A stretch of DNA of 64,000 bases from Acinetobacter sp. CS-2 (lineage in GTDB: Bacteria; Pseudomonadota; Gammaproteobacteria; Pseudomonadales; Moraxellaceae). A model generated the notes under the pieces. It did not search any database and was not told the origin of the DNA. It saw nothing but the letters and a program-made list of their open reading frames with translations. The DNA lies in NCBI RefSeq assembly GCF_016599715.1, contig NZ_CP067019.1, positions 2,914,001 through 2,978,000 on the forward strand. The letters run 5' to 3'. The translations under genes and the position numbers were made by a program. Shown here one piece after another: positions 1-1,550 of this stretch (positions are counted from its first letter, which is position 1; every line of letters begins with the position of its first letter).

Positions 1-286
1 TAGGAGTGTATTGAATTACAATTGCGCCAGTAGTTTCGTTAGGTGTAATAGATGTTACATTCTCAGTTGAAGCAGTGGTTGGGACACCCAATATTAAACT
101 AGAAGCACCTGCAGCAGCATTTTCAGCAATGACTGTTTTATAAGACGACGCAAGGTTTAAACCTTCAGTCACTTTAGAACGAACGATATAATCTTGATAA
201 GCTGGAATCGCAATTGCAGCCAAAATACCGATAATCGCGACTACGATCATTAATTCAATAAGAGTAAAACCCTTTTGTGCATTCAT
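1..286 (-). CDS. pilA: Major type IV pilin PilA (3' end outside window)
   Basis: N-terminal part of a class IVa prepilin. A six-residue leader (MNAQKG) is followed by the prepilin-peptidase site G|F and the hydrophobic helix FTLIELMIVVAIIGILAAIA, the assembly signal of the family. The pilin would be cleaved and N-methylated by PilD and polymerised at the inner membrane by the PilBCMNOPQ machine, part of which lies at 14-21 kb. Start: ATG at 284-286 with a GGAGA ribosome site about six bases upstream. Only about 95 codons are present; the C-terminal half lies left of position 1. The gene is odd because an ISAba1-like element begins 33 bases upstream of the ATG and separates it from a sigma-54-like promoter at 1535-1550. 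Family identity is certain. Calling it the main pilin rather than a minor one is inference from the leader and promoter. Confidence 0.9.
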   Translation of the reverse strand, partial: MNAQKGFTLIELMIVVAIIGILAAIAIPAYQDYIVRSKVTEGLNLASSYKTVIAENAAAGASSLILGVPTTASTENVTSITPNETTGAIVIQYTP

Positions 287-336
287 AACATTCTCCACAA
301 ATGTTTTGTTAATTTTTTCTCTGTACACGACAAATT

Positions 337-873
337 TCATAGGATCCTTGTCCTATCAGGCTTTTTCTTTCTTAAAATTGCTAGCACTTTCTTAAATTCT
401 TCTTTTTTTCCAAAACCAATCAAACGTAGAATAGCCATTTGAACATAGTCCAAACCGTAGCGAAATAAACTTACTGAAAGTCGTCCATGCTTCTTTATTT
501 TTATCGCTTTTTTCCGATCATGTTGCCATTCACCTGTTAAATAGCACCAACAGAAACCGATAGCTAGCACTGCTATCAATTTCTTGACTCGTCTAGGGTC
601 TGTTAAACGAGTATTTTCAAGATTGAATCCACGTCCTTTGAGACAACTAAATAACGTTTCGATTTCCCAGCGTAATGCATAATCACGAATAGCAGAAGCA
701 TTAAACATAGGAGAAACAACAAGTAAAAGCTCTCCATCTTCTAATCGTAGCGCACTAATATACAGTTTCACTCGACCAACCCAAATACGTCGTTTACGAC
801 ATTCAGTTTGACCAACTTGAAGATGACGAAATAAATCACTAATTTTATGATTCTTGGCTAAGTGATTGGTCAC
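337..873 (-). CDS. IS4-family transposase, C-terminal frame (OrfB)
   Basis: Second transposase frame of the ISAba1-like element, 178 residues counted from its own ATG, which overlaps the end of OrfA by four bases. It holds the IS4 signature Y(2)R(3)E(6)K, seen as YALRWEIETLFSCLK (about residues 66-80), including the third catalytic acidic residue. It lacks the two aspartates, so it can only be catalytic when fused to OrfA by frameshifting at the A7 run near 880-890. The stop codon lies 18 bases inside the element's end, directly before pilA, so transposase transcription could run into pilA. Confidence 0.87.
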   Translation of the reverse strand: MTNHLAKNHKISDLFRHLQVGQTECRKRRIWVGRVKLYISALRLEDGELLLVVSPMFNASAIRDYALRWEIETLFSCLKGRGFNLENTRLTDPRRVKKLIAVLAIGFCWCYLTGEWQHDRKKAIKIKKHGRLSVSLFRYGLDYVQMAILRLIGFGKKEEFKKVLAILRKKKPDRTRIL

Positions 874-1430
874 AATAAAGTTTTTTTAACACGTATACAG
901 AAGTTAATGTCATTTTCAATTAACCATGTAAACCATTTCTCACCGATAAATTCTCTGTCTGCAAACACATTCACAATACGATCTTTACCAAAAATGGAGA
1001 TAAAGCGTTGAATCAAAGCAATACGCTCTTTTGTATCTGAATTTCCACGTTTATTGAGCAATGTCCAAACAATAGGTATCGCTATTCCACGATAGACGAT
1101 GGCTAACATCAAGATATTGATATCTCGTTTTCCCCATTTCCAATTAGTTCTATCCAAAGTTAATTGGACTTTATCGAATGAAAATATATTGAAAATTAAC
1201 TGAGAAATTTGACGATAATCGAAATACTGATCTGCAAAGAAGCGTTGTATACGTCGATAAAATGATTGTGGTAAGCACTTGATGGGTAAGGCTTTAGATG
1301 CAGAAGAAAGATTACATGTCTGTTTTACAATTAATGCAAGCATAATCAGTGTAAAACATTTTGCATGTGACTTGTTCCACTTTAGATATTTGTTTAAGAT
1401 GAGATGTAACTCATTGAAATGTGTCATCAT
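870..1430 (-). CDS. IS4-family transposase, N-terminal frame (OrfA)
   Basis: First of two overlapping transposase frames of the ISAba1-like element, 186 residues. It carries the first two catalytic aspartates of the DDE domain, in the contexts LDRTNWKWG (residues about 92-100) and VFADREFIGEKW (about 155-166). The frame ends in VKKTLL at a run of seven A followed by C (minus strand). A -1 shift at this run would read on in the 337-873 frame as VKKNFIVTNHL, joining both halves into one protein of about 360 residues. That layout is known for ISAba1; shifting by the ribosome or by polymerase slippage is my inference from the A7 tract. Confidence 0.88.
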   Translation of the reverse strand: MMTHFNELHLILNKYLKWNKSHAKCFTLIMLALIVKQTCNLSSASKALPIKCLPQSFYRRIQRFFADQYFDYRQISQLIFNIFSFDKVQLTLDRTNWKWGKRDINILMLAIVYRGIAIPIVWTLLNKRGNSDTKERIALIQRFISIFGKDRIVNVFADREFIGEKWFTWLIENDINFCIRVKKTLL

Positions 1431-1534
1431 ATTCGTCGTCAGAAAACAAGTATTATGCCATTATTTCAATGAGTTATCTTTTTTTGTCGTGTACAAAGTA
1501 ATTTTTTATAAGCTTTGTAAGCTAATTTATAGTT

Positions 1535-1550
1535 AGCACTAATTGTGCCA
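1535..1550 (-). promoter_or_regulatory. Sigma-54-type promoter, probably the pilA promoter, now detached
   Basis: Read on the minus strand the site is TGGCACAATTAGTGCT. It matches the RpoN consensus TGGCAC-N5-TTGCW with one mismatch; the GG (-24) and GC (-12) pairs have the correct 10-bp gap. If the 1180-bp element and one duplication copy are removed, transcription starting about 12 bases downstream would give a leader of about 50 nt before the pilA ATG. That fits PilS/PilR-controlled, sigma-54-dependent pilin genes of related bacteria. As it stands, the site is about 1.25 kb from the gene. Confidence 0.65.

What the first reader, a model, noticed from the sequence alone, without database searches (positions are those of the whole stretch)
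286..1550. ISAba1-like element separates pilA from its sigma-54 promoter
A complete 1180-bp ISAba1-like element with perfect 9-bp duplication (taatttttt) sits in the leader of pilA. Downstream of it are the ribosome site and gene; upstream is a good RpoN-type promoter. Without the element the leader would be about 50 nt, so the site fits as the natural promoter. Pilin expression should now depend on read-through of transposase transcription, which points toward pilA. ISAba1 is best known for turning neighbouring genes on; here it probably turns one off.
Basis: partly seen in the sequence, partly recalled or inferred. Interest (0 to 1): 0.72.

Follow-up and report, generated by a model that had tools for sequence, protein, structure and literature searches.

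The report
Pilus genes riddled by insertion sequences
A jumping DNA element sits between a bacterium's main pilus gene and its switch, but it is only one of five such hits across the pilus machinery of this strain, so the whole system is probably off.

Summary
The anatomy is confirmed: a complete 1180-bp IS4-family element (window 319-1498), 9-bp duplication TAATTTTTT, in the leader of an intact pilA, with a good RpoN (-24/-12) site at 1551-1535 on the pilA strand. Corrections. (1) It is ISAba33 (up to 99.9%); ISAba1 is 88-89% alike. (2) Its ISAba1-type outward promoter (1439-1466, +) points away from pilA, while the native RpoN promoter still points through the element at pilA: distanced, not simply cut off. 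(3) The pilA insertion is not the only, perhaps not the decisive, lesion. Another ISAba33 splits pilR, the RpoN activator, from its DNA-binding domain; a third splits pilJ; ISAba11 splits pilW and pilM. Five of 26 chromosomal copies counted hit pilus loci against 0.24 expected (4e-6, post hoc); but pilW, pilA and pilM lie within 35 kb and the copies cluster in general, and counted as one event the figure is 1.4e-3. PilR, PilJ and PilM are full-length in 42, 43 and 44 of 44 related genomes. The strain (96% to Acinetobacter kookii over 4.7 kb) has most likely lost working type IV pili by repeated IS insertion. IS inactivation is a known kind of event; the multiplicity is unusual. Expression, order and cause are untested.

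The parts
1..286 (-). pilA, 5' part of the major type IV pilin gene (rest outside the window, to C1:2913840)
   Evidence: Pfam PF00114 and PF07963
293..296 (-). GGAG, likely ribosome site of pilA
   Evidence: sequence; same leader end in ten relatives
310..318 (.). 9-bp target duplication TAATTTTTT, pilA side
319..1498 (-). ISAba33, complete, 1180 bp, transposase reading toward pilA
   Evidence: up to 99.9% to records annotated ISAba33, 88-89% to those annotated ISAba1; copies and duplications
337..873 (-). transposase, second reading frame; its TGA stop overlaps an ATG (340-338) whose frame runs into pilA
   Evidence: NCBIfam NF033591
870..1430 (-). transposase, first reading frame; an A7 run on this strand (881-887) is a plausible frameshift site (inferred)
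1407..1476 (-). hairpin around the transposase start: 14-bp perfect arms 1407-1420 and 1463-1476; RNA fold z -3.5 and -3.7
1439..1466 (+). ISAba1-type outward promoter TCAGAA-N16-TTATTT, pointing away from pilA
   Evidence: same place and orientation in the two ISAba1-like copies
1499..1507 (.). 9-bp target duplication TAATTTTTT, promoter side
1535..1551 (-). RpoN (-24/-12) promoter site of pilA, TTGGCACAATTAGTGCT
   Evidence: conserved in ten aligned relatives
1641..1659 (-). terminator-like stem after the upstream TPM-domain gene
18229..19238 (-). pilM, 3' piece (lacks the first 17 codons)
   Evidence: Pfam PilM_2 and TIGR01175
19244..21450 (-). ISAba11 in pilM (19244-20299 plus 21406-21450), duplication TAATA at 19239-19243 / 21451-21455, with a second ISAba11 nested at 20300-21400 (duplication TTTAT)
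21452..21502 (-). pilM, first 17 codons, cut off by ISAba11
14141..18229 (-). pilN, pilO, pilP, pilQ, open frames, downstream of the broken pilM
   Evidence: secretin match; pilN/O/P named from order and recall

Best explanation
ISAba33 inserted in the pilA leader as one of at least five independent IS insertions that broke the type IV pilus system of this Acinetobacter strain. Mechanism: (i) pilA transcription is RpoN-dependent and needs PilR; PilR now stops just inside a second ISAba33 and lacks its Fis-type DNA-binding domain, so the pilA promoter should be idle; (ii) the element in the leader puts the ATG 1.2 kb further from that promoter, behind a hairpin and a transposase gene, and no promoter-like site in it points at pilA; (iii) pilM (inner-membrane platform), pilW (minor pilin) and pilJ (receptor of the Chp system) are each split, so no working pilus should be made. 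Shown: the insertions, duplications, broken frames, and full-length PilR, PilJ and PilM in nearly all relatives examined. Inferred: loss of pilin, piliation, twitching and DNA uptake. The cause is most likely selection for, or tolerance of, pilus loss during an IS burst; which, and in what order the hits came, is not shown.
For: pilR: ISAba33 at C1:315901-317080, duplication ATCTTTTTC; N part 433 aa with receiver and sigma-54 domains, C part 44 aa with HTH_8, on opposite sides. pilJ: ISAba33 at C1:2367315-2368494, duplication TTGCGATTT, between a 5' piece after pilI and the rest with the MCP domain. pilW: ISAba11 at C1:2900696-2901796, duplication GTATC, N_methyl piece and PilW-domain piece on either side. 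pilM: ISAba11 plus nested ISAba11. 5 of 26 chromosomal copies of three IS types lie in about 30.4 kb of pilus genes, expected 0.24, binomial 3.9e-6; ISAba33 alone 3 of 9, 6.5e-5. Relatives: PilR full-length in 42 of 44, PilJ 43 of 44, PilM 44 of 44 genomes. In A. baumannii pilR deletion makes tagged PilA undetectable, and pilS, pilR, chpA and pilG deletions abolish transformation (PMC8088505 section 11); PilM (ComM) and the PilW homolog (ComB) are in the core needed for competence and twitching in A. baylyi (PMC5542475, passages).
Against: No expression or phenotype data. In A. baylyi pilR deletion only partly reduced twitching and PilS/PilR were not needed for transformation. The RpoN promoter and ribosome site of pilA are kept and read-through is possible. 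PilM could start anew (GTG at 19257), and ISAba33's outward promoter could drive pilJ's 3' part and chpA. The other pilus genes looked at have open frames, so decay is not general. The excess is weaker than it looks: pilW, pilA and pilM insertions lie within 34.8 kb, the 26 copies cluster more than random ones (14 pairs within 35 kb, reached by 1.6% of 5000 random sets), and with the three counted once the probability is 1.4e-3, or 0.03 with a tripled target. The pathway was chosen after seeing the hits.
Confidence: 0.66

Rival explanations
1. Local hotspots: the IS elements land near existing copies or in favoured DNA, and the pilus loci happen to lie in such places; no selection on pili is needed, though the genes are still broken.
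For: The 26 insertions cluster (14 pairs within 35 kb; 1.6% of random sets reach that), pilW, pilA and pilM insertions lie within 34.8 kb, and pilJ lies within 12 kb of two ISAba1-like copies. In A. baumannii H-NS captures ISAba13 in AT-rich DNA, and new hotspots of about 10 kb arise around existing ISAba13 copies (PMC11335895, passages and a legend). The pilA leader flank is 74% AT.
Against: Flanks of the 5 pilus sites average 59.8% AT against 63.3% for the 21 others; two unrelated IS families (IS4, IS701) hit the pathway; within the clusters the hits still fall in pilus genes; pilR lies 43 kb or more from the nearest other counted copy.
Confidence: 0.17
2. One reading: the leader insertion by itself is what silences pilA, the other hits being later or irrelevant.
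For: 1248 nt lie between the RpoN site and the ATG; no promoter-like site pointing at pilA was flagged in the element; the outward promoter points the other way.
Against: PilR, needed for that promoter, is truncated by the same kind of element; two structural genes are also split. Order unknown.
Confidence: 0.1
3. Rewiring: after pilR was lost, the insertion gave pilA an RpoN-independent supply by read-through from the transposase promoter, with translation coupled at the ATGA overlap to a prepilin frame with a 24-residue leader.
For: Transposase and pilA are co-directional; the transposase stop overlaps an ATG whose frame runs into pilA as a 166-codon ORF, preceded by AAGGA; pilA itself is intact.
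Against: No promoter-like site on that strand in the element; IS4-type transposases are usually weakly transcribed (recalled); pilM and pilW are also split.
Confidence: 0.05
4. Assembly error: IS copies misplaced in pil loci.
For: Many near-identical copies exist.
Against: Each of the five sites has its own matching duplication; genome in 3 contigs, completeness 100.
Confidence: 0.02

Closest known systems
ISAba33 (IS4 family; named in PMC5320574, passages read)
   Same: 1180 bp over full length, up to 99.9% identity to annotated copies, 9-bp duplication
   Different: There it is reported with ISAba1 in a Tn2008-like oxa23 transposon; here it sits in pilus loci
ISAba1 activation of neighbouring genes (PMC9330008, passages)
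   Same: Similar outward promoter at the same end (TCAGAA here, TTAGAA in the ISAba1-like copies, both with TTATTT)
   Different: 88-89% identity; the promoter end faces away from pilA, so no activation is expected
MGE interruption of transformation genes in A. baumannii, chiefly comM, and pilQ by a phage in 1 strain (PMC11472951, passages)
   Same: Mobile DNA breaking genes of DNA uptake
   Different: Here five insertions of two IS families in five pilus loci of one genome; the passages seen tell of single interrupted genes
IS insertions in csu pili, one by ISAba33, in a chronic animal infection (PMC11840173, passages)
   Same: Recurrent IS loss of a surface appendage in Acinetobacter, same IS
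   Different: Chaperone-usher pili in A. baumannii, spread over isolates

Membership tests
ISAba33 | Full-length nucleotide match to annotated copies | tested here: met
   1180 of 1180 bases, up to 99.9%
ISAba33 | IS4-type transposase | tested here: met
   NF033591 split over two frames
ISAba33 | 9-bp target duplication | tested here: met
   9 of 9 copies
ISAba1 | Near-identity to ISAba1 | tested here: not met
   88-89% to records annotated ISAba1
RpoN-dependent pilA promoter | TGGCACG-N4-TTGCW type site with GG-N10-GC spacing | tested here: met
   11 of 13 scored positions; the consensus is recalled
RpoN-dependent pilA promoter | Conserved upstream of pilA in relatives | tested here: met
   TTGGCA-type site 46-139 nt before a pilin ATG in 44 of 57 loci; 7 had no pilin, 4 (L062, L063, L069, L074) a pilin without such a site, 2 (L060, L065) only a doubtful one; loci partly redundant
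RpoN-dependent pilA promoter | RpoN and a PilR-type activator acting on it | tested here: inconclusive
   rpoN frame open; PilR lacks its HTH; action not testable here
Type IVa major pilin PilA | Prepilin N-methylation motif and Pilin domain | tested here: met
   PF07963, PF00114
MGE-driven loss of transformation | Loss of transformation in the strain | not testable with these tools
   needs a bench assay

The most novel reading that the evidence does not exclude
The repeated hits are an intragenomic conflict caught in the act: type IV pilus loss stops natural transformation, which otherwise removes IS copies by recombination, so lineages whose pilus genes are hit keep and multiply their IS elements, and a genome ends with several independent pilus hits by different IS families.
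Probability: 0.1. Interest if true: 0.72.

Novelty: new member of a known kind. Interest (0 to 1): 0.4.

Why it matters
One insertion in a pilin leader would be an anecdote. Five insertions by two IS families in one pathway, each with its own duplication, with PilR, PilJ and PilM full-length in nearly all relatives examined, make a natural case for asking whether pilus (and DNA-uptake) loss is selected, tolerated, a hotspot effect, or favoured by the elements themselves. It also warns against reading an IS upstream of a gene as a switch before checking the activator and the rest of the pathway.

Tried and rejected
ISAba1 identity: rejected on 88-89% identity. Activation of pilA by the known outward promoter: rejected on orientation. 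A hybrid sigma-70 promoter at the junction: none flagged (on that strand only a 9-of-12 match at 1551-1524, outside the element and overlapping the RpoN site). AT content as the sole cause of the pathway bias: not favoured; local clustering remains a live rival. ISAba33 in relatives: 0 of 12 genomes matched, but that search had no positive control and drafts may lack small repeat contigs, so nothing is concluded. Dating by IS divergence: the pilA copy differs at 1 base from L003, L005 and L007 and at 3 from L009; L002, L004, L006 and L008 lie in the other orientation and were not compared base by base. The pilM ISAba11 differs at 15 of 1056 bases from the copy nested in it. Only 'pilM hit before the nested copy' follows. 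ISAba11 duplications: 14 of the 16 copies that could score match; L099 and L107 do not; L106 and L112 were not scored, L112 (pilM) being read by eye. Not examined: pilF, fimV, comEA, comEC, comM and others; pilW in relatives. Only three IS types were counted; one IS5-family copy was seen in passing.

Full report
What is there. The window starts inside pilA, read on the minus strand from an ATG at 286. The protein is complete in the genome (148 aa) and matches Pilin and N_methyl. Between its leader and the RpoN-type site at 1551-1535 lies an 1180-bp element, 319-1498, with 16-bp imperfect ends and a perfect 9-bp duplication TAATTTTTT. Plasmid records annotated ISAba33 match over the full length at up to 99.9%; the listed ones annotated ISAba1 match at 88-89%.

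Where it is. The window is C1:2914001-2978000 of a 3-contig, 3.57-Mb genome. Over 4.7 kb next to pilA it is 96.3% identical to Acinetobacter kookii ANC 4667, the nearest of the loci compared. This suggests A. kookii or a sister species; no genome-wide identity was computed.

The promoter. I examined 57 loci: L022-L030 (L021 is the own genome; L031 was left out) and the 48 Acinetobacter loci. In 44 a TTGGCA-type GG-N10-GC site lies 46-139 nt upstream of a pilin ATG (in L043, L061 and L066 that pilin is not the one after the TPM gene). Seven had no pilin in reach, four had a pilin but no such site (L062, L063, L069, L074) and two had only doubtful sites (L060, L065). Some loci are redundant. An alignment of ten chosen relatives with the own flank shows the site, a block upstream of it (AAAGTGCTGTTTTTT and TTTATTATAATCA, nearly invariant) and the end of the leader conserved, and no insertion in any of the ten. 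The site is 1248 nt from the ATG now; without element and one duplication the count is 59.

The element as a regulator. ISAba33 carries TCAGAA-N16-TTATTT at 1439-1466 on the plus strand. The two ISAba1-like copies in the genome carry TTAGAA-N16-TTATTT at the same place and in the same orientation relative to the transposase, which by sequence is the known ISAba1 outward promoter (PMC9330008, passages; that paper gives the spacer as 17). It points away from pilA, against the upstream TPM-domain gene. On the pilA strand the scan flagged no sigma-70-like site in the element and one weak terminator-like stem. A hairpin with 14-bp perfect arms encloses the transposase start and folds better than shuffles (z -3.5 and -3.7); by analogy with other IS4-family elements (recalled) it may keep incoming transcripts from being translated into transposase. 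The native RpoN promoter is still upstream and co-directional, so if active it would make one long RNA through the transposase into pilA.

The wider finding. A search for sigma-54 activators showed one next to another ISAba33 copy. That copy, C1:315901-317080, lies inside pilR: the N part (receiver, sigma-54 domain) and the C part (HTH_8) are on opposite sides of it, next to an open pilS frame with a PilS-type membrane domain. A third copy, C1:2367315-2368494, lies inside pilJ of the pilGHIJ-chpA cluster (names from order and the CheW and MCP domains). ISAba11 (IS701 family by plasmid annotation, 1101 bp; 16 places on C1 and 2 on C2) splits pilW at C1:2900696-2901796 and, within the window, pilM after codon 17; a second ISAba11 is nested in the pilM copy. 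Each of the five pilus insertions has its own perfect duplication. The other pilus genes looked at have open frames (several named by order and recall).

Is it more than chance? Counting chromosomal copies of ISAba33 (9), the ISAba1-like element (2) and ISAba11 (15, the nested copy and the 2 on C2 dropped), 5 of 26 fall in pilus genes or the pilA leader, together about 30.4 kb of 3.26 Mb (pilJ, pilR, pilM, pilW and pilA lengths approximate). Expected 0.24; binomial probability 3.9e-6, 6.9e-4 if the effective target is tripled; ISAba33 alone 3 of 9, 6.5e-5. Two things weaken this. The pathway was singled out after the hits were seen. And the copies are not scattered evenly: pilW, pilA and pilM insertions lie within 34.8 kb, and 14 pairs of the 26 lie within 35 kb of each other, which 1.6% of 5000 random sets reach (the largest group in 35 kb, 3, is ordinary, 51%). 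With the three neighbours counted once, 3 of 24 gives 1.4e-3, 0.010 with a doubled and 0.03 with a tripled target. AT content alone does not explain it: flanks of the pilus sites average 59.8% AT, those of the 21 others 63.3%.

Relatives. 44 of the 48 Acinetobacter loci were used as genome handles (L052, L053, L057 and L061 left out as contig ends or MAGs). PilR: 42 of 44 with open frames of 474-519 codons, one of them (G055) with a TGA inside; 2 of 44 (G069, G080) with only more distant activators. PilJ: 43 of 44, 689-727 codons; none in G067. PilM: 44 of 44, 353-379 codons. PilW was not searched in relatives. So loss of these three genes is rare among the species examined.

What it does. In A. 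baumannii, deletion of pilS or pilR lowers pilA RNA, makes tagged PilA undetectable and abolishes transformation; chpA and pilG deletions abolish transformation without lowering PilA (PMC8088505, section 11 read). In A. [quoted passage not shown] From this I infer that the strain makes little pilin and no working pili, and that the pilA leader insertion adds to, rather than alone causes, that state.

Why five? One hit is enough to lose the pilus, so the later ones were either passengers of an IS burst in a pathway no longer under selection, or favoured by local hotspots, or each shed a residual cost, or the elements gained by ending transformation. The last idea has support at species level: comM interruption, mostly by MGEs, is commoner in non-transformable A. 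baumannii, and the authors find transformation associated with MGE loss (PMC11472951, passages). Nothing here decides between these. The nested copy shows only that pilM was hit before that copy arrived; its near-identity to the pilW copy (1 difference in 1056 bases) fits a recent burst.

Novelty. Searches of open-access full text for ISAba33, for ISAba1 with pilA and twitching, for ISAba33/ISAba11 with pil terms, and for IS hits in pilus or transformation genes listed no paper that by title, abstract start or the passages I opened describes such a multi-hit. The lists were capped (for example 20 of 24, 10 of 107), most listed papers were not opened, and subscription papers are not held. IS inactivation of pilus or transformation genes is itself known.

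Noticed in passing
window 340 to L083 4840 (- strand): The transposase stop TGA overlaps an ATG (ATGA) whose frame runs through the IS end in frame into pilA, giving a 166-codon ORF with a 24-residue prepilin leader instead of 6.
   Followed up: partly
window 19244-21450: ISAba11 nested in ISAba11 inside pilM, each with its own 5-bp duplication.
   Followed up: yes
L083 about 2360-3240: An IS5-family element lies between two large O-antigen-ligase-like genes (pilin glycosylation type by recall) downstream of pilA; 99.7% to the best plasmid copies.
   Followed up: partly
L003, L005, L006, L010: Other ISAba33 or ISAba1-like copies appear to split an hsdS-like gene, an endonuclease-like gene, a TonB-receptor-like gene and a large exported protein (named by eye).
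   Followed up: no
G000 C1:2357687-2425399: Five counted IS copies (3 ISAba33 or ISAba1-like neighbours of the pilJ hit included) lie in 68 kb, part of a general clustering of the copies.
   Followed up: partly
L034, L037, L038, L051, L058: In these relatives no pilin gene was found in the locus, although most Acinetobacter loci seen have one there; L052 and L053 end at contig edges.
   Followed up: no
window 1555-1590: A nearly invariant block upstream of the RpoN site (AAAGTGCTGTTTTTT and TTTATTATAATCA on the - strand) in ten relatives, a candidate activator or bending-protein site.
   Followed up: no
G069 (A. ursingii, L067) and G080 (A. rathckeae, L078): No close PilR homolog, though both keep a TTGGCA-type site before pilA.
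   Followed up: no
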